In this document: piece after piece, positions 51,019 through 61,509 of the stretch
Numbering within the stretch: the stretch's first letter is position 1
How the letters are laid out: the number at the start of each line of letters is the position of its first letter
From: Candidatus Poseidoniaceae archaeon
GTDB taxonomy: Archaea; Thermoplasmatota; Poseidoniia; Poseidoniales; Poseidoniaceae
DNA length: 64,000 nt
NCBI GenBank assembly: GCA_938075675.1
Contig: CALJHE010000014.1
Location: 62,001 to 126,000, forward strand
Direction: 5' to 3'
Made by a program: the position numbers and the translations under genes
The notes under the pieces: generated by a model
Seen by the model: only the letters and a program-made list of their open reading frames with translations
What the model was told of the DNA's origin: nothing
The model's database searches: none

Positions 51019-54000
51019 ATGGAAGGGCGCGTATTCTATGCCATACTCCTTGTTGGTTTGCTTGTTGTTTCAGGTTGTCTCGGAAACGCCGACATTGAAT
51101 CCGAAATTCCTGAGGATGACAACCAATACATTGGGATTATTTCACTCAATGCTTCATGGGGAGCATTAATCCAATCAATTCCGATGGATGGAACTCCAAT
51201 TGTCCTTCAAGTCGTAATTGCAAGCGAAGGTGATGACTGGGGTGCACAGCCGACAATTCTTACGCCTGATTTCACATCTCTTTCGTTGTACGAGTGGGAG
51301 AAAAATCAACAAGGATATCAACTAACATTTGTTCCCGAAATTACGGGAGATTATTCGATTCAAATTGAATTTGCCACTACGAATAATGCTGAATTTAGTG
51401 ACCCACAGCCGGTACGACTCACTCATGTCATCTCAGTACAACCCGTAGAGGAAGATGCTCCAATCCTTACAGCACCAGTATTTATCGAAATTGAAGAACA
51501 ACGGCTCATATGGTATGAAGGAACTGTAAGCCATGCAAATATTGCTACCTGTACACTTGAGATACTGCTTGAAGAGGGTACAAGAAAATCACCTGCAGTC
51601 AAGGATGATGGGACATGGAAACTTTTACTCGACCTGTCTGAATCTGAATCGTCATTTGACATTCACGCAGACGTAGAATGTGGCACATATTCTCCAAAAA
51701 ATGACACTGTTGTTACACAAATCATCATCGCAAATATGGGTGAAGATTCCGATGGAGATGGAATACCTGATGAGAATGACCGATGCCCGAACGGCTACGG
51801 TGTCGCAGATGGATGGACATCATCGCTTGCAAGCGACCAAGACCAAGACGGATGTCATGACCTTCAGGAAGATACAGATGATGACAACGATGGTGTTGCG
51901 GACGACTACGACCTTTGCCCAACTTCCTTTGGGTGGGTTAGTTTCCCCAATGCAGACTATGATTCAGATGGTTGCCATGACGCAGATGAAGATGATGACG
52001 ATGATAACGATGGAATCCTCGATGTGGATGATTTATGCCCGTGGGGATTCATTGGCTGGAGTTCAAGCACCTTCAGTGATTGGGACAGCGATGGTTGCTC
52101 GGATCTTGATGAAGATATGGATGATGACAACGATGGATTGAATGATGAAATGGATTCATGTCCAAAGGGATTGACGAATTGGATTCGCAACCCATCAACT
52201 GATTTTGATGACGATGGTTGCTCAGATTCAACTGAAGACCTTGACGACGACAACGACTCCGTTGATGATGTGAACAGCACCGGCAGCCCCCTTGACTTGT
52301 GCCCGGAAACTCCACTCAATGCGACCCAAATCGACGAAAATGGATGCGCAGCAGTTCAACGTGACACCGATGTTGATGGTGTAAATGACTTGGACGATCA
52401 GTGCCCAGGTACCCCAGCACAACTGCCAGTCAATGCTGTCGGGTGCGCAGACATTGACGCTGATGGTGTGTTCGCTAATGTTGACCTCTGCCCAAACTCA
52501 CCGGGGCGCTGGACCATTGATTCTGATGGATGTGCAGTGATTCAATCTGCCATCCCATGGACGAGTTCATCTGCGCTTGATGCTCCAATGCAATCCGTTC
52601 CTGACTTTTCGATACCTACACTTGAAGGTACATTTTACTTCCAGCAAGAGTGGACCGGATACGACATTTACTTTTTCTTGTTCAAGTATACGGATTCCAG
52701 TGGCAACTCCAATTCTGCAACTTGGGGCCAAAGCCCTGGACAGTTTCTCCGGGCCATGCCCGACAATGTCCATGTGTTCTATGGCTCGTTTGATTCATCG
52801 TATCATACCGATGTCGTGAGTCGGAAAACGGCAGTTGAGAATGCCTTGAACCCGAATGAAGAGGCAGAATGGAATGGGCGGATACACTATATTGACCAAA
52901 GAGCTAACAGCATTTCTGGAGGTTTAGGCCAAATGATTTCAAACTTCAATTCCCCTTTGTATATGGGCATAGATCGATTCCAACTCGCAAGAGAAACTGG
53001 AAGTTTGTATGCGTGGACGTCATCCAACAATGACCCCATGCATTTGGTTCATGAACCTGCACAATGGAATGCCGAGTTCCCAGTTGAGATACGAAGGTCT
53101 GACCCTGGCGTCCAAGAAGTATCGATCATGGATTTTGACCGTCACACGGGCGGATGGGGGGGTGGCTTCACATCAACAATGAGCGCTGAGTTCCCAAACA
53201 ACCTCACAGAATACGACACAATGGAGGTCTACCATGAGCATGCGTGTATCGACCGTATGAATCGATACCAAACAAGCGATGGAACATACGCTGGTTGCCA
53301 CGAGTGGGATTATGAGGCAAATCTACGAATATGTGATCGTGGCAACACCTCTTCCTGCAGTACGGAGTTTATGAGATGGATAACCACATACGGTCGAGAA
53401 GGAAAATGGCTTACCGATATCTCCCCGTACCTTTTCATGTTGGAAAACGATGATAATCGGACATTCAAATATCGGGGTGCGAACAAAGGTGACCTCACAA
53501 TTTCAGTTTTGTTGAGTAATTGGGGCAGCGGTTTACGCAGCACTACGGCAGATTTTGCATTTACTGGCGGGCAATTCGACGGAACTTACAACGATGTAAC
53601 AAAATACACACGTGATCTTAATTTTACTGTACCTTCATGGGCAGAAAAAGTTCAAATTGTTGCAACAATAACAGGGCATGGGTTCGGTAAAGACAATGCA
53701 AATTGTGCTGAGTTCTGTGACCATGAACATCACTATTCGATGAATGGATTCACCACATACGAATGGCACCCTATTGTGTATTCAAACGAAGGTTGCGAAA
53801 ATGAAGTTGAGAACGGTGTCGTCGCTAATCAATTTGGTTCCTGGCCCTTTGGTCGAGCGGGCTGGTGTGCCGGTCAAGATGTCAAGCAATGGACCTACGA
53901 TATCACCGATTGGAGTGATATGAACGGCGGAGTGAATCATCTCACTTATCGAGGATTATACAACGGCCAAGAGTATGTACCATCGGACGGTGTAGGAAAC

Positions 54001-54063
54001 GGAGAGCGGAACATCCACGCAGAAATTTGGGTCGTCTACTACGATTCGACAACTTCACCCTGA
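51019..54063 (+). CDS. Lipoprotein with type-3 repeats and a PNGase F-like domain
   Basis: A 1014-residue lipoprotein. The signal ends in LVVSGC with lipid-attachment Cys20. Two beta domains (about 30-235) precede thrombospondin type-3 calcium repeats (about 240-505; DSDGDGIPDENDRCP, DDDNDGVADDYDLCP and others). A thioredoxin-like segment follows (about 530-690). The last 330 residues resemble both halves of peptide:N-glycosidase F: CHEWDYEANLRICD, EFMRWITTYGREGKWLTDIS, then ITGHGFGKDNANCAEFCDHEHHYS and RAGWCAGQDV. PNGase F cleaves N-glycans from asparagine. Substrate and activity here are inferred. TSP3 repeats should hold the catalytic part off the membrane. Confidence 0.88.
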   Translation: MEGRVFYAILLVGLLVVSGCLGNADIESEIPEDDNQYIGIISLNASWGALIQSIPMDGTPIVLQVVIASEGDDWGAQPTILTPDFTSLSLYEWEKNQQGYQLTFVPEITGDYSIQIEFATTNNAEFSDPQPVRLTHVISVQPVEEDAPILTAPVFIEIEEQRLIWYEGTVSHANIATCTLEILLEEGTRKSPAVKDDGTWKLLLDLSESESSFDIHADVECGTYSPKNDTVVTQIIIANMGEDSDGDGIPDENDRCPNGYGVADGWTSSLASDQDQDGCHDLQEDTDDDNDGVADDYDLCPTSFGWVSFPNADYDSDGCHDADEDDDDDNDGILDVDDLCPWGFIGWSSSTFSDWDSDGCSDLDEDMDDDNDGLNDEMDSCPKGLTNWIRNPSTDFDDDGCSDSTEDLDDDNDSVDDVNSTGSPLDLCPETPLNATQIDENGCAAVQRDTDVDGVNDLDDQCPGTPAQLPVNAVGCADIDADGVFANVDLCPNSPGRWTIDSDGCAVIQSAIPWTSSSALDAPMQSVPDFSIPTLEGTFYFQQEWTGYDIYFFLFKYTDSSGNSNSATWGQSPGQFLRAMPDNVHVFYGSFDSSYHTDVVSRKTAVENALNPNEEAEWNGRIHYIDQRANSISGGLGQMISNFNSPLYMGIDRFQLARETGSLYAWTSSNNDPMHLVHEPAQWNAEFPVEIRRSDPGVQEVSIMDFDRHTGGWGGGFTSTMSAEFPNNLTEYDTMEVYHEHACIDRMNRYQTSDGTYAGCHEWDYEANLRICDRGNTSSCSTEFMRWITTYGREGKWLTDISPYLFMLENDDNRTFKYRGANKGDLTISVLLSNWGSGLRSTTADFAFTGGQFDGTYNDVTKYTRDLNFTVPSWAEKVQIVATITGHGFGKDNANCAEFCDHEHHYSMNGFTTYEWHPIVYSNEGCENEVENGVVANQFGSWPFGRAGWCAGQDVKQWTYDITDWSDMNGGVNHLTYRGLYNGQEYVPSDGVGNGERNIHAEIWVVYYDSTTSP
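51743..52545 (+). repeat. Thrombospondin type-3 calcium repeats (coding)
   Basis: Within the lipoprotein, about seven units of D-x-D-x-D-G-x-x-D-x-x-D-x-C-P spaced 35-45 residues apart bind Ca2+. The repetition lies at protein level; the DNA units diverge. The Cys of each unit likely forms disulfides between neighbours. Confidence 0.75.
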
Positions 54064-54064
54064 T

Positions 54065-55249
54065 TCAAAACTGAGATGGTGGTGGGGATTGCAAATCTTT
54101 TCGATCCGTTCCACATTCAGGTGTATCCAAAAAAACATAATCACTGTCACGACGTTGAGGTGAGAAGCCTGCACGAAGAATGACATTTTGCAATTCGATT
54201 TCAGAAGCGTGGAATTTGGTGGTACCCGAAGCTGAAACTACATTTTCTTCCATCATGGTTGAGCCAACGTCGTTAGCACCACCGAAAAGCGCCATTTGGG
54301 CGGTTTTAATGCCCATGGTGGGCCATGATGATTGAATGTTCGGGATAGAATCGAGGAACAGGCGAGAAACTGCCACGTGACGAAGATATTCTGTTGAGCC
54401 AGCGCCAAGTTGTATCTTGTTTTGACCTCTGTTCCTTCGACCGAAACTGTTGACCTCAAGCTGAACTGGCCAAGCGATGAATGAGGTGAACCCGATTCCG
54501 TGCTGTTCCAGAGAACGGTCTTGCAGTTGCCGCAGACGGTACATGTGTTCGACACGCTGCTCCAATGTTTCACCAAATCCAATGACATTCGTTGCACTCG
54601 TAGTCAATCCAAGCGATTGCGCTTCTTCCATTACCCTGAGCCAGTTCGCAGGAAGCCCCTTTTTTGGAGATACATCTTTTCGAACATCATCAACCAACAT
54701 TTCTGCCCCCCCACCGGGGAGACCGTGCATACCTGCAGCCTTGAGTCGAGTCAATACTTCAAGCGTTGAAAGTTCACTTACTTCTGCAATTCCTTCGATC
54801 TCAATGGGGCTAAAGCAATCAATTGCAATCGATGGATGCCGAGTGCAAAGCTCCCGCAAGAGGTTTTCATACCATTCAAATGAGAGATCCGGGTTCACTC
54901 CACCCTGCATTAGAATACGAACTCCTTCGATGTTTTCGAGTTCTTGAATTCGTGCAGATATCTCATCGATGGACTGAGTGTATGTTTCTTCATGGCCGGG
55001 TGGGCGGTAAAAAGAACAGAATTGGCAATTGATAGTACAGATATTGGTGTAGTTGATGTTGCGGTCAATAAGATAGGTAACTTTACTCGCACCGTGCATT
55101 GCATTTCGTCGTAAAAGTGCAGCACTCATCAATTGGTGAAGCGGTGCATTTTGGTACAATTCAACTGCTTCCTCGGAACTCAGTCGATACTGCGAGGCTG
55201 AATCCTTATGCCACAAGGCCTGTCTCTCTAGAATTGCAGACCATGACAT
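54065..55249 (-). CDS. mqnC: Dehypoxanthine futalosine cyclase (radical SAM, MqnC)
   Basis: MqnC closes the ring in the futalosine route to menaquinone. The 394-residue protein has the cluster motif Cys71-x3-Cys75-x2-Cys78 in NYTNICTINCQFCSFYR. The following RPPGHEETY, ILMQGGVNPDL, the internal AGMHGLPGGGAEML and the C-terminal PTMGIKTAQMALFGGANDVGS (two motifs) and MMEENVVSASG separate MqnC from the related F420 enzyme CofH. No mqnA, mqnB or mqnD is in the window. It implies menaquinone, consistent with class 2 PyrD and CcmE. Confidence 0.9.
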   Translation of the reverse strand: MSWSAILERQALWHKDSASQYRLSSEEAVELYQNAPLHQLMSAALLRRNAMHGASKVTYLIDRNINYTNICTINCQFCSFYRPPGHEETYTQSIDEISARIQELENIEGVRILMQGGVNPDLSFEWYENLLRELCTRHPSIAIDCFSPIEIEGIAEVSELSTLEVLTRLKAAGMHGLPGGGAEMLVDDVRKDVSPKKGLPANWLRVMEEAQSLGLTTSATNVIGFGETLEQRVEHMYRLRQLQDRSLEQHGIGFTSFIAWPVQLEVNSFGRRNRGQNKIQLGAGSTEYLRHVAVSRLFLDSIPNIQSSWPTMGIKTAQMALFGGANDVGSTMMEENVVSASGTTKFHASEIELQNVILRAGFSPQRRDSDYVFLDTPECGTDRKDLQSPPPSQF

Positions 55250-56675: not shown

Positions 56676-58247
56676 TTACAATTGACCCGTTTCATCATCA
56701 GTATTAGGCTGAGATGAAACTGATTTGACGTTCCATTTAGGTAACTCCGAATCTGATGATTTGGAACGTAAGATTACAACGGTGATAGAGCCGCCAACGA
56801 GAAGTGAGACCAAGACCGAGGCAACGATAAACGCAGAGCGCGGTTGGTTTTGGACTGTCGGAGAAGAATTTTCAAGAATCAAGGAAAACTGAGTTTCGCT
56901 TGAGGCGCCGTTGTCATCTTCTACGACAAGTCGAATATCATAGTTTCCAGATTCAGAAAACTTTGCTGAATCAAGGACTGCTTTTCCCGCCAAAAACGTA
57001 TTGCCGTTGACATACCATGTGTACGATAACGATTGAGCATCGCTTGCAGTATCAGCGCTCATTGAACCGTTCAGTTCCCAAACTTCATCACTGCCAAGAG
57101 TAATTGTGTAATTTGGTTCGACGGCAAATGAATCGATTTCAACTCGGACCACCGGAGGGATATTCGTAACCAAAAATTGAGACTCAGAGACAGTTAGCCA
57201 GCCAGCAGTATCACGAACAAGCAATTCCACGGTCCAAGTTCCAGAGAAAGGTGGATGAATGGAAATAATCGACTGTGACACATACTCTGACTCGGCAACG
57301 GCACGACGCGAACCATCAGGCTCTACCAATGTCCATGTCAATCTGTTTTCACCGCCGATGTAACCGTCTTCTACTACTGCTGAAAATGAAATTTCTTCAT
57401 CTTCATGCACAACAGGAAGTTCAGAGACCAACTGTTCCACTGGGGTTGAATCCTCGACAGCCTGTGCATCGCTGGTGAGCAAGACTGTTGGCTGAGTCCT
57501 GTCAACGAGTAAACGGAAACTCGCAGTGTTTGAGGTGTGTAGAAGTGTATCAGTCACCGTCATGTCGAACAACCAGTATCCATCATCAAATTGAACTGAA
57601 TCAAGTTCGAAATCCAGCGTAAGTACGCCGTTGCTCGTGGTAGAAACAAAATCTGTGAAAGAAACCATTTCCTCAAGACAGTTTCCAGAGGGAGCCGAAC
57701 ATACAGACATGGTGACGAACGTCTCGTTGATACTGTATAATGGAAGAACTACAGGGACATTTATTGTCAAATCTTGTGCTGAAAGGAGATAGTATTGCCT
57801 GTCGTCACTTTGGTACTCATTACCAAACTCGTGAATGTAGGGGGAATGGTTTGATGTGCCAAGATACACAACTCGTGAGTTGAGTGAATCCGCATTCGAT
57901 AATTCACCAATGACCAAACGGCACGTGCAGTCGTATGTAGATACATTCAGTTCGAGATTCCACTCCCATATACCACTGCTGACTGCATTAACATTGGAGA
58001 GCTTTCCTGATTCAAGTGCAATGGTTGAATTGTCGAAAAGGTCGTAAAGGTGCCAGTCAATATCAGCGAGGGGAATCAAGGAGGTACCGTTGAGATACAG
58101 CGAGTCATGAAATTCAAGGCCCATAGTACCTTGATGTATCGTGATGGTTGCATCCTCGGTGCTTGGTGATGCGGCATTCGTGACAGGGATACATGATGTG
58201 AGAAGGCCTGCCACGGCCATGAAAAACAGTGCTTTCACGGGTCGCAT
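56676..58247 (-). CDS. Lipoprotein with PKD-type domain and C-terminal anchor
   Basis: A 523-residue exported protein. The signal peptide RPVKALFFMAVAGLLTSC ends at Cys19, a lipobox-like site. Beta-sandwich domains follow, including a PKD-like unit (about 380-460; SLSYTWYVNG, SGNYDIRLVVEDDNG). A membrane helix near 480-505 (AFIVASVLVSLLVGGSITVVIL) anchors it a second time, an unusual combination. Several N-glycosylation sequons are present. Ligand unknown. It lies between the large type-3-repeat protein and the peptidase gene, on their strand. Confidence 0.7.
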   Translation of the reverse strand: MRPVKALFFMAVAGLLTSCIPVTNAASPSTEDATITIHQGTMGLEFHDSLYLNGTSLIPLADIDWHLYDLFDNSTIALESGKLSNVNAVSSGIWEWNLELNVSTYDCTCRLVIGELSNADSLNSRVVYLGTSNHSPYIHEFGNEYQSDDRQYYLLSAQDLTINVPVVLPLYSINETFVTMSVCSAPSGNCLEEMVSFTDFVSTTSNGVLTLDFELDSVQFDDGYWLFDMTVTDTLLHTSNTASFRLLVDRTQPTVLLTSDAQAVEDSTPVEQLVSELPVVHEDEEISFSAVVEDGYIGGENRLTWTLVEPDGSRRAVAESEYVSQSIISIHPPFSGTWTVELLVRDTAGWLTVSESQFLVTNIPPVVRVEIDSFAVEPNYTITLGSDEVWELNGSMSADTASDAQSLSYTWYVNGNTFLAGKAVLDSAKFSESGNYDIRLVVEDDNGASSETQFSLILENSSPTVQNQPRSAFIVASVLVSLLVGGSITVVILRSKSSDSELPKWNVKSVSSQPNTDDETGQL

Positions 58248-58310
58248 GGAATTACTCCTCACGCCGACGGACATGAAGGTTCGTCCGGAATGACTGTAGA
58301 CTGAACGATA

Positions 58311-61300
58311 TCATTGAGCAAATGGGTCGCACAATTCACCTTGACCCGGGAAACTGGTTGGATTACGAGGGTTCGTGTCCCATTTGAATTCACAATAATT
58401 TACGTGGCCATCACCATCGGTATCGATCATGCGGTCCGCTGGGTCATCCGGATCAAACTGGAAGTGGTATTCCCAACCTGTGGCCATGCCATCATCATCG
58501 TGGTCCTGATAGTATACCTCAGGGCCATCGTTCCATTGATCGCCGTCAGAATCATTTGAAATTGGATTCGTTCCGTTCTGCTTCTCTTCGAAGTTCGTGT
58601 AATTCTCCAGATTATCGTAGAAACGCTTGCCGTCGGGTGAGTCAGGGTCAATGTTACAGTCAGAGTTTGTACTGTCGTTGTAACCTGAACAATATTTCTT
58701 GATAAGACCAGAGCGGTTGAGTCCATCGTTATCAGGATCTTCCGCACCATCCATGATTCCATCGAGGTCACTGTCCGGCATTGATGGGTCCATGACACCA
58801 CGAGCGCCATACGCATCGGTAGCGCCTTCTTCAACAAGTCCGCTCTCCAGAGCTAGTCGTGAGTAATACACTTCCCAGCCGTCAGGTAGGCTATCTGAGT
58901 CCGTATCATCATCGACTGGGTTGGTGTTCCACTTATCTGGAGCTTCTGCGCTGTTTGAAAGTGAGTCGTTGTCGACGTCAAAAGTGTCATCTTTCAATGA
59001 ATCGAGAGAAGGGTCAAGTGCCCAACGGCCGTTGCAATCACAGAAAGCATTGATTGGCATCGAGAATCCAGTTAAGTTCATCTCCGAAACTTCATACTTC
59101 TTTTCGATGATGAATCCGCCGAGATTGTTTTGCCAGACATAGCCACCTGCATCCATTGAACAGTCGTTGTTCTGCGATGGTACGCATCCAGGGCGCTGCC
59201 AGGAGGATGTGGCGACCCACAGGCTGTGTGAGTTGGTATTCTCCTCTGCTGATTTCACCTGCATCTCCCAACCATCGAGCATTCCATCAGAATCAGTATC
59301 GTTGAGGAGAGGATTTGTTGGGTTTTGGAAAGGTCGTGGGACGAAAAGAACTTCGTTACCATCAATCAAACTATCGTTATCTGTATCTGAATTGTTTGCG
59401 TGGGTAAGGAAATTATCCTTTCCTGCAATGACTTCCTCTCCGTCTTCCAATCCATCGTTATCAGTATCGAACATACACGGGCTCGTGAAGTAAGCAACGC
59501 CTTCCCATGAGTATCCAGTGAGTGCTTCTATCTGGTCAAGTTCACCGTCGCCGTCCGTATCAGGGTTGGAGGCATTGGATCCGCCGGCACACGTGTTGGC
59601 AAACTCGTCATAATCTGAAAGGCCATCAGAATCTGTATCGAAGAGTCCGGGGTCGGATGTGACCCAAGTCTTCACAACACCGTTATTGACAACAAGAATT
59701 TCCCAGCCCATGACCTCAATACCGTCGAGGAGGTTGTCACCATCGGTATCAGGGTTCAGCGGGTCAGTGGAACGGCCATCGATAATTCCATCACCGTTTC
59801 GATCACGGGCATTGTATTCCATGAGGTTCGTAAACTGCTCTTCAGGTTCGACAATTTCCATCCACTGGAACAGACGAGATTCGACAGCTTGTCCAACGGA
59901 GACATCAATTTGGTATACATATCCAGATACAGGGGCCTGCATAGCGATTGTTTGCTTCTGCCCACCAGCTAGAGTGATTTGACCACGGGCGACTGTTGAG
60001 TTTGCTTCGACCCACTGGTCTTTGACGACATCAATACCCACAACAATAGTCGTTGATTCAAGAGTTGTGTAGAACACGCCACCATCGCCGTCTACATCCC
60101 AGCCGTCATGGTCAGGATCGAGATTACCGTTCGCACCGTCTCGAGGGTGAAGGCCGTTGGTTGATTCCCATCCATCTGGCATACCATCAATATCGGTGTC
60201 GAGTCGCCATGGTGAAGTGAAATTTGTTGGGCCGAAAATCTCAGCCACTTCGTATTCTTCAAGATTGTTTAGGCCGTCTTCGTCCCAGTCTCCATAGCCA
60301 TCGGAAGCGTTGGCAGGATTGAGTGTCTTTGATGCATCATTTTGAGGATGGTCGTTTACATCGGAATAACAGAATTCGAATCCGTCTGGCATTCCATCTC
60401 CATCGGTATCCCAGTCAGATGGCCCGTTGAGGAGGCCATCGCCGTCCATATCCATCAAGAACCACGAGTTTTCAACACCTGCGAACGGTGATGCACGAGT
60501 AATTGGATCAAGGAGAGGGATGTTACAGTTTTCGCCAACACCAGTTGAAAGGGTGGAAGTCAAGTTACTTACCTCCACAATGTCATCGAGAAGGTCCATG
60601 TCAGAGTCTCGTGCGTTTGGATTCGTGCCGAACATCTCCTCTTGGAAATTAGGAAGACCGTCTTCGTCGGTGTCAAGGACCATGTCACAAGAGTGTGCTC
60701 CAGAAGGGTTAGCGAGTTGATCCCAAGATGGAAGGGCGTCGGAGGAATCGTAGAATACCGAGAGAGTTTCTTCCATTGCTTGGTCGAGTAAAAGACAATC
60801 CCAGTTTCCGTTGAGTGGATTGAACAACACGACGTCGCCACCAGGGGTTTGAACAGTTTGTGTGTACTTGGACTCCCAGAGGTCATTGAGTCCGTCGTTG
60901 TCAGTGTCGGACCGCTGAGGGTCTGTTTGGAGTTCTTGCTCTTGCTGGTTTGTTAGACCGTCATTGTCTGGGTCGCCGTTCGGTCCCTGCTGAGGGTCAG
61001 GCCACGAATCAGTTTCGTTTTCGATGTTTGCTTCGTCGGTATTGTCGTTGTTTGAACTGTCTTGGTCGAGATCTTCGGATTCCCCGTTGTCAAGGGGGTT
61101 AAGTCCATGATCAACTTCCCAACCGTCACTCATACCGTCAAAGTCAGTATCAGCGAGTTGAGGGTCTGTTCCGTATTGGGTCGATTCGAGAAGGTCTGAC
61201 AAACCATCGCCGTCGGTATCCAGTGCCGCACTGATAGAGGTACCTGAACCAATCAAATCCTCTTCTGCTGCGCTTTCAAAACCGCCGATACCTTCACTGG

Positions 61301-61394
61301 TTTGGAAGTAGCCGGAGAAACCGACGAAAAGAGAGCCAAAAATCAAGGTTGATATGATTGCGGCATAGGCCATTTGGTTGTGATTCAGAGACAT
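58311..61394 (-). CDS. Large exported protein with thrombospondin type-3 repeats
   Basis: A 1027-residue protein with an N-terminal membrane segment (MAYAAIISTLIFGSLFVGF) acting as a signal anchor or signal peptide. The remainder is made of many D-x-D-x-D-G-x-x-D units (DTDGDGLSDLLE, DTDFDGMSDGWEV, DTDNDGLEDGEE and so on), often followed by NPLLNDTD or GTDPQLAD, with one beta domain in the middle (about 440-540). It ends in a repeat with Cys and has no second membrane segment. Each unit should bind Ca2+. Extracellular structural or adhesive role inferred. Confidence 0.85.
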   Translation of the reverse strand: MSLNHNQMAYAAIISTLIFGSLFVGFSGYFQTSEGIGGFESAAEEDLIGSGTSISAALDTDGDGLSDLLESTQYGTDPQLADTDFDGMSDGWEVDHGLNPLDNGESEDLDQDSSNNDNTDEANIENETDSWPDPQQGPNGDPDNDGLTNQQEQELQTDPQRSDTDNDGLNDLWESKYTQTVQTPGGDVVLFNPLNGNWDCLLLDQAMEETLSVFYDSSDALPSWDQLANPSGAHSCDMVLDTDEDGLPNFQEEMFGTNPNARDSDMDLLDDIVEVSNLTSTLSTGVGENCNIPLLDPITRASPFAGVENSWFLMDMDGDGLLNGPSDWDTDGDGMPDGFEFCYSDVNDHPQNDASKTLNPANASDGYGDWDEDGLNNLEEYEVAEIFGPTNFTSPWRLDTDIDGMPDGWESTNGLHPRDGANGNLDPDHDGWDVDGDGGVFYTTLESTTIVVGIDVVKDQWVEANSTVARGQITLAGGQKQTIAMQAPVSGYVYQIDVSVGQAVESRLFQWMEIVEPEEQFTNLMEYNARDRNGDGIIDGRSTDPLNPDTDGDNLLDGIEVMGWEILVVNNGVVKTWVTSDPGLFDTDSDGLSDYDEFANTCAGGSNASNPDTDGDGELDQIEALTGYSWEGVAYFTSPCMFDTDNDGLEDGEEVIAGKDNFLTHANNSDTDNDSLIDGNEVLFVPRPFQNPTNPLLNDTDSDGMLDGWEMQVKSAEENTNSHSLWVATSSWQRPGCVPSQNNDCSMDAGGYVWQNNLGGFIIEKKYEVSEMNLTGFSMPINAFCDCNGRWALDPSLDSLKDDTFDVDNDSLSNSAEAPDKWNTNPVDDDTDSDSLPDGWEVYYSRLALESGLVEEGATDAYGARGVMDPSMPDSDLDGIMDGAEDPDNDGLNRSGLIKKYCSGYNDSTNSDCNIDPDSPDGKRFYDNLENYTNFEEKQNGTNPISNDSDGDQWNDGPEVYYQDHDDDGMATGWEYHFQFDPDDPADRMIDTDGDGHVNYCEFKWDTNPRNPTSFPGQGELCDPFAQ

Positions 61395-61509
61395 TTCATA
61401 CACCACGCACATCAGTGCAACTTTACCGACTTGGTGTATGGGTTATAGACCTTAACTCTCAATGTGCTGTTCTATCAGGAGAATGTGTGACCGTATAGAG
61501 TGATTGGCG

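What the first reader, a model, noticed from the sequence alone, without database searches (positions are those of the whole stretch)
51019..54063. PNGase F-like enzyme on a calcium-repeat stalk in an archaeal lipoprotein
The C-terminal 330 residues show motif blocks of both halves of peptide:N-glycosidase F, and the protein is lipid-anchored through Cys20 with seven type-3 repeats between. PNGase F homologues are best known from bacteria and some eukaryotes. In a marine archaeon it could deglycosylate algal or host glycoproteins before proteolysis.
Basis: partly seen in the sequence, partly recalled or inferred. Interest (0 to 1): 0.6.

Follow-up and report, generated by a model that had tools for sequence, protein, structure and literature searches.

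The report
Archaeal surface enzyme resembling PNGase F
A very common group of ocean archaea carries on its cell surface a protein that looks like a working PNGase, an enzyme that cuts sugar chains off proteins; PNGases of this type have been described from bacteria and aquatic animals, and I found no report of one in archaea.

Summary
ORF 51019-54063 (+, 1014 aa) belongs to the PNGase F superfamily: Pfam N-glycanase_C, E=1.6e-20. The closest solved relative is zebrafish acid PNGase Ngly2 (9lwg; sequence E=7e-39, fold E=6e-23), ahead of PNGase F itself. The two catalytic acids align as Asp764 (PNGase F Asp60, Ngly2 Asp421) and Glu898 (Glu206, Glu555). Both are invariant in all 139 sequences compared.

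The PA lid of Ngly2 and of the Deinococcus enzyme is absent.

The gene is core and syntenic in Ca. Poseidoniaceae (Marine Group II), patchy in a sister family, and present in one genus of another order, so it is not contamination. I found no paper describing an archaeal PNGase. The genome has 12 S8 peptidase hits but none of five N-glycan-catabolic families tested. I favour removal of N-glycans from foreign glycoproteins before proteolysis; action on the archaeon's own N-glycans remains open.

The parts
51019..54063 (+). Whole ORF, 1014 aa: predicted lipid-anchored PNGase F/Ngly2-type N-glycanase
51019..51078 (+). Signal peptide with lipobox (VSGC); lipid-anchor Cys20 at 51076-51078
   Evidence: sequence; lipobox seen in nearly all homologues with an intact 5' end
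51079..51732 (+). N-terminal region, residues 21-238, no Pfam match
51733..52542 (+). Seven TSP3-like acidic Cys-Pro repeats (ten DxDxDG motifs; 29% Asp+Glu), likely calcium-binding spacer
   Evidence: weak TSP_3 match
52591..52947 (+). Thioredoxin-like domain, residues ~525-643, no cysteines
   Evidence: profile match to Ngly2 Tx-like region; AF2 model; only significant Foldseek hit is 9lwg, E=3.5e-4; Cys list
53110..54048 (+). PNGase catalytic domain, residues ~698-1010 (two jelly-roll halves)
53587..53949 (+). Pfam N-glycanase_C (PF09113), residues 857-977
53305..53313 (+). W763-D764-Y765: aromatic-Asp-aromatic motif; D764 = catalytic Asp60 of PNGase F / Asp421 of Ngly2
53407..53409 (+). 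W797 = Ngly2 Trp480 (Ngly2 mutant almost inactive)
   Evidence: PMC12753239
53677..53679 (+). H887, aligned with Ngly2 His546 and PNGase F Trp191
53710..53712 (+). E898 = catalytic Glu206 of PNGase F / Glu555 of Ngly2

Best explanation
This is a membrane-anchored, outward-facing peptide:N-glycanase of the PNGase F superfamily. Lipidated Cys20 holds it to the membrane, a calcium-stiffened TSP3-like spacer lifts it off the surface, and a non-redox thioredoxin-like module (the dimerisation module in Ngly2) carries the catalytic two-jelly-roll domain. Asp764 and Glu898 hydrolyse the amide between Asn and the innermost GlcNAc of N-glycans. This turns Asn into Asp and frees the glycan. Most likely it strips N-glycans from foreign (algal or other eukaryotic) glycoproteins and glycopeptides at the cell surface, so that the archaeon's many peptidases can digest them and it can import the peptides. 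Shown here: gene, family, catalytic residues, lipobox, repeats, thioredoxin-like domain, conservation, purifying selection. Inferred: the activity itself, dimerisation, calcium binding, and the foreign substrate.
For: Pfam E=1.6e-20. The nearest solved structure is an enzyme with demonstrated PNGase activity, zebrafish Ngly2, E=7e-39, E=3e-56 with a profile, also first by fold, E=6e-23, with PNGase F entries next. 36% identity over 291 aligned positions to the Deinococcus radiodurans protein WP_010889584.1, which was expressed and assayed as PNGaseDr (PMC12381499). Catalytic D764 and E898, plus W763 and H887, are invariant in 139/139 sequences and W797 is W in 135. Ngly2 loses all activity when the same Asp or Glu is replaced by Ala (PMC12753239). 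Cys pairs of the fold are kept (C743/C760, C896/C900, C926/C950). dN/dS about 0.03-0.04. G000 has 12 subtilisin-family (S8) hits but no GH20, GH92, GH38, GH18 or glycosylasparaginase hits, which fits a protein-eater that removes N-glycans rather than eating them. Published surveys describe Marine Group II as proteolytic, with oligopeptide transport (PMC6336850, PMC6461757).
Against: No activity data exist for any archaeal member. The AF2 model is weak around the active site (pLDDT<50 for residues 250-259 and 379-393 of the construct), so active-site geometry was not verified. The third PNGase F carboxylate, Glu118, is not conserved (Ser or Tyr depending on the alignment), although it also varies in active homologues (Gly in type II, PMC9522356). 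The gene has no glycan-degrading neighbours. The organism has its own N-glycosylation enzyme, so self-substrates are possible.
Confidence: 0.68

Rival explanations
1. Same chemistry, own substrate: the enzyme removes or edits N-glycans of the archaeon's own surface proteins (quality control, turnover, or detaching surface layers).
For: All six genomes searched, including this one, carry an STT3/AglB oligosaccharyltransferase homologue, so own N-glycoproteins probably exist. The gene is a vertically kept core gene in fixed synteny in Poseidoniaceae. The protein is tethered to the cell's own membrane, and there is no machinery among the families tested to consume eukaryotic N-glycans.
Against: AglB-type glycosylation was found in all six genomes searched, and it is general in archaea (own knowledge), whereas this gene is missing from most archaea and patchy even in the sister family. 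Known archaeal N-glycans often lack the GlcNAc2 core that PNGase F enzymes recognise (own knowledge). The superfamily members studied in bacteria are scavenging enzymes (PMC12381499, PMC9522356).
Confidence: 0.22
2. A non-catalytic, glycan-binding or adhesion protein built on a PNGase F fold, used with its calcium repeats to stick to particles.
For: TSP3-type proteins are discussed as adhesins in Ca. Poseidoniales (PMC6461757), another TSP3 protein lies close by (58311-61412), and the N-terminal 220 residues look like further surface modules.
Against: A pure binder would not need both catalytic acids, yet D764 and E898 never vary in 139 sequences spanning three families down to about 43% identity or less. 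They align with residues essential for catalysis in Ngly2 and PNGase F.
Confidence: 0.08
3. Contamination, mis-binning or a chance match.
For: Most carrier genomes are metagenome-assembled.
Against: The same gene in the same gene order occurs in nearly all of 80 independent loci, including two whose record titles carry single-cell style isolate names and no MAG label (AH-273-O19, AH-287-P07), and in the closed MG-II chromosome CM001443. E-values are far beyond chance, and dN/dS is about 0.03-0.04.
Confidence: 0.01

Closest known systems
Zebrafish Ngly2 (Si:dkey-256h2.1, PDB 9lwg), acid PNGase
   Same: Catalytic Asp and Glu, Trp420, Trp480 and His546 equivalents, and a thioredoxin-like domain without a CxxC motif before the PNGase domain.
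   Different: Ngly2 has a PA domain inserted in the thioredoxin-like domain, forming a lid over the cleft, and is lysosomal. The archaeal protein has no PA domain, is a predicted lipoprotein and has TSP3-like repeats.
Deinococcus radiodurans PNGaseDr (WP_010889584.1)
   Same: 36% identity over 291 positions of the catalytic domain, same catalytic residues, also begins with a lipobox-like SGC.
   Different: Carries a PA domain (Pfam E=1.8e-12) and no TSP3 repeats.
PNGase F, Elizabethkingia meningoseptica (1pnf, 1pgs, 3pms)
   Same: Both jelly-roll halves, Asp60, Glu206 and Cys pairs.
   Different: Single-domain secreted enzyme; Trp191 where the archaeal protein has His; Glu118 not conserved in the archaeal protein; far more distant in sequence (profile E=4e-8).
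PNGase F-II / Bacteroides group 2 PNGases (4r4z, 7zgn)
   Same: Same fold superfamily; no Glu at the Glu118 position.
   Different: N-terminal bowl-like domain instead of thioredoxin-like domain; much lower similarity.

Membership tests
PNGase F superfamily (PF09112/PF09113) | Pfam N-glycanase_C above its curated cut-off | tested here: met
   73.7 bits, cut-off 25; all 77 archaeal hits above cut-off
PNGase F superfamily (PF09112/PF09113) | N-terminal jelly-roll half | tested here: met
   Profile alignment covers both halves of PNGase F and Ngly2. The Pfam N-half model PF09112 itself does not match, so this half is divergent.
PNGase F superfamily (PF09112/PF09113) | Catalytic Asp60 and Glu206 | tested here: met
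   D764 and E898, 139/139, aligned with PNGase F and Ngly2
PNGase F superfamily (PF09112/PF09113) | Two-jelly-roll fold | tested here: met
   Foldseek best hits are all PNGases (E=6e-23 to 2e-6), but mean pLDDT is only 64 and loops are unreliable
PNGase F superfamily (PF09112/PF09113) | Glu118 (not universal in the family) | tested here: inconclusive
   No Glu at either candidate position: Tyr818 (HMMER alignment) or Ser833 (MAFFT); also varies among active enzymes (PMC9522356)
PNGase F superfamily (PF09112/PF09113) | Release of N-glycans from glycopeptides | not testable with these tools
   needs a bench assay
Ngly2-type PNGase (Tx-like + PA + PNGase) | Thioredoxin-like domain without CxxC upstream of the PNGase domain | tested here: met
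Ngly2-type PNGase (Tx-like + PA + PNGase) | PA domain inserted in the thioredoxin-like domain | tested here: not met
   No PA match at E<=10, while the Deinococcus homologue scores 1.8e-12; no room for ~130 residues between the domains
Ngly2-type PNGase (Tx-like + PA + PNGase) | Active-site His546 and Trp480 | tested here: met
   H887 in 139/139, W797 in 135/139
Ngly2-type PNGase (Tx-like + PA + PNGase) | Homodimer, activity at acid pH | not testable with these tools
   needs purified protein
Sec-exported lipoprotein | Lipobox with Cys after a short hydrophobic segment | tested here: met
   VSGC at residues 17-20; lipobox visible in nearly all homologues with an intact 5' end

The most novel reading that the evidence does not exclude
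Archaea of the class that holds Marine Group II have an enzymatic N-deglycosylation step that works on their own AglB-made N-glycans: a surface PNGase that edits or recycles the cell's own glycoproteins, the archaeal counterpart of eukaryotic N-glycan removal. If so, Poseidoniales N-glycans must be joined to Asn through a PNGase-cleavable GlcNAc.
Probability: 0.2. Interest if true: 0.68.

Novelty: new member of a known kind. Interest (0 to 1): 0.47.

Why it matters
Marine Group II archaea are among the most abundant archaea of the sunlit ocean and have published reputations as protein degraders, but the surveys I read (PMC6336850, PMC6461757, PMC6864105) name no enzyme for N-glycoproteins in their main text, and full-text searches found no described archaeal PNGase. 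A core-gene surface N-glycanase in Poseidoniaceae would add a way to attack algal glycoprotein and a ready explanation of how glycan-shielded protein is opened to peptidases. It also extends the PNGase F superfamily to archaea. It gives a version of the Ngly2 architecture without the PA lid, which allows a direct test of what that lid does.

Tried and rejected
Search of viral contigs and phages for relatives: none. Plasmids: only Deinococcus. Contamination or mis-binning: rejected. N-glycan utilisation locus as in Bacteroides: rejected, no GH20, GH92, GH38, GH18 or glycosylasparaginase in this genome and no such neighbours. Copper monooxygenase (PHM) reading: PHM entries appear lower in the fold list (E>=5e-6), which is expected from the shared jelly-roll fold; no sequence support. 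Position of Glu118: two alignments disagree, left open. Reading catalytic geometry from the model: not possible, low confidence there. Origin of the archaeal family (direction of transfer between bacteria, archaea and animals): not resolved, because the single genome-collection scan returned only the 80 best matches, and a search centred on the Deinococcus record was not accepted.

Full report
What was checked. The ORF 51019-54063 on the + strand is real, 1014 aa, ATG start. Pfam finds one family, N-glycanase_C PF09113, at residues 857-977 with E=1.6e-20. The best solved relative is chain 9lwg, zebrafish Ngly2, E=7e-39. With a profile built from 24 sequences (the window and relatives in related archaeal genomes) this becomes E=3e-56, and PNGase F itself (1pnf, 1pgs, 3pms) appears at 3e-8 to 5e-8, aligned over residues 5-258, that is over both halves.

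Catalytic residues. PNGase F Asp60 lies in CDEWDRYAN and Glu206 in GCAEWC. The archaeal protein has CHEWDYEAN (D764) and NCAEFC (E898). Ngly2 has CAHWDHTVQ and NCGEFC. In all 139 sequences compared (the window plus 138 open frames from loci of three families of the class; loci from different searches partly overlap) D764, E898, W763 and H887 never change; W797, which matches Ngly2 Trp480, is W in 135 and Y in 4. In Ngly2, alanine mutants of the two acids lose all activity and W480A keeps only feeble activity (PMC12753239). H887 aligns with Ngly2 His546 and with PNGase F Trp191; a histidine here is the usual state in the superfamily (PMC12381499). Three cysteine pairs matching cysteines of PNGase F are present (C743/C760, C896/C900, C926/C950). 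Glu118 of PNGase F is not conserved. The HMMER alignment puts Tyr818 there, MAFFT puts Ser833; I leave this open. The loss is not fatal, because active type II enzymes have glycine there (PMC9522356), and it might allow core alpha-1,3-fucose, as in plant and invertebrate glycans (inference).

Architecture. Cys20 follows a hydrophobic signal sequence in a VSGC lipobox, and a lipobox is visible in nearly all homologues with intact 5' ends. Residues 21-238 have no family. Residues ~522-643 align weakly with the thioredoxin-like domain of Ngly2 in the sequence profile (independent E=0.03, co-linear). The AF2 model of this piece alone is confident over that stretch. Its only significant match among all PDB chains is Ngly2, E=3.5e-4, with thioredoxin-like proteins and peroxiredoxins among the hits below significance. 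There are no cysteines in it, so it is not a redox enzyme; in Ngly2 the same kind of domain mediates dimerisation (PMC12753239). The PA domain that sits in Ngly2 and in the Deinococcus enzyme (Pfam E=1.8e-12 there) is absent here, and there is no room for it. In Ngly2 that domain roofs the cleft and seems to restrict the enzyme to flexible peptides (PMC12753239), so the archaeal enzyme may accept bulkier substrates (inference).

Model quality. The AF2 model of residues 508-1014 has mean pLDDT 64 and is poor in the active-site loops. The fold search still ranks Ngly2 first (E=6e-23), followed by PNGases down to rank 14. I use the model for fold only, not for active-site geometry.

Distribution. 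By titles of the matching records the window is from Ca. Poseidoniaceae (Marine Group IIa). A Pfam search of 390 genomes of the phylum found the domain in 77: 61 of 72 genomes of the same family, 12 in a second family of the same order, and 4 in one genus of another order in the same class; no listed hit lay outside the class, and none in 14 control genomes (family counts by my tally of its table). A scan of 84,980 species genomes confirmed 266 stretches encoding relatives; the 80 best were kept, nearly all titled Poseidoniales, Poseidonia or Euryarchaeota. Gene order around the gene (topoisomerase, FAD oxidoreductase, hypothetical, this gene, CofH/MqnC-like, M24 peptidase, PKD protein, TSP3 protein) is the same in nearly all of the 80 loci. 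dN/dS for the two closest pairs is 0.03-0.04. The gene is therefore an old, vertically inherited, constrained core gene of Poseidoniaceae. None was found in phages or viral contigs.

Genome context for function. The genome has one STT3/AglB homologue and 12 subtilisin-family peptidase hits. Five families of N-glycan catabolism were absent: GH20, GH92, GH38, GH18 and glycosylasparaginase. Published surveys describe the group as proteolytic, with extracellular peptidases and an oligopeptide transporter and few glycoside hydrolases (PMC6336850, PMC6461757, PMC6864105). The simplest reading is that the enzyme removes N-glycans so that peptidases can work, without the cell using the glycan. The main rival is action on the archaeon's own N-glycoproteins. 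I put the first at 0.68 and the second at 0.22. A non-catalytic role is unlikely given the invariance of both acids.

What is known. PNGase F-type enzymes are described from bacteria and from aquatic animals and algae (PMC12381499, PMC12753239). Neither paper mentions archaea, and full-text searches found no archaeal PNGase (subscription papers are not covered). The Deinococcus relative, 36% identical in the catalytic domain, was among six enzymes expressed and assayed in PMC12381499. Accessory modules vary widely in this superfamily, so I call this a new member of a known kind, with an unusual architecture and host.

Limits. No activity data exist for any archaeal member. The origin of the archaeal branch was not resolved. 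Calcium binding, lipidation and dimerisation are inferred from sequence.

Noticed in passing
L141:5623-15246 (G000 contig C3): The only STT3/AglB oligosaccharyltransferase homologue of this genome sits in a giant ORF of 3207 aa with carboxypeptidase-regulatory-like domains and a weak NOMO-like match. Open frames of 1603-3277 aa carry it in the five other genomes searched, and an S8 peptidase hit lies just downstream here.
   Followed up: partly
window 58311-61412 and 56676-58274 (-): A TSP3-repeat protein and a PKD-domain protein lie close by in conserved order; the first is highly conserved (up to 99% identity in loci), the second diverges quickly (down to 25%).
   Followed up: no
window 54065-55249 (-): Radical SAM protein of the CofH/MqnC type next to the gene, conserved in 78 of 80 loci.
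   Followed up: no
L101: Contig labelled as a Rhodobiaceae bacterium has the full Poseidoniaceae gene order, so the record title looks wrong.
   Followed up: partly
L007:1783-3021: The catalytic-domain frame of this homologue stops about 95 residues early, a possible frameshift or sequencing error.
   Followed up: no
L031, L033, L034, L036: Relatives from another order of the class have a long insertion (about 60 residues) just after the catalytic Asp motif.
   Followed up: no
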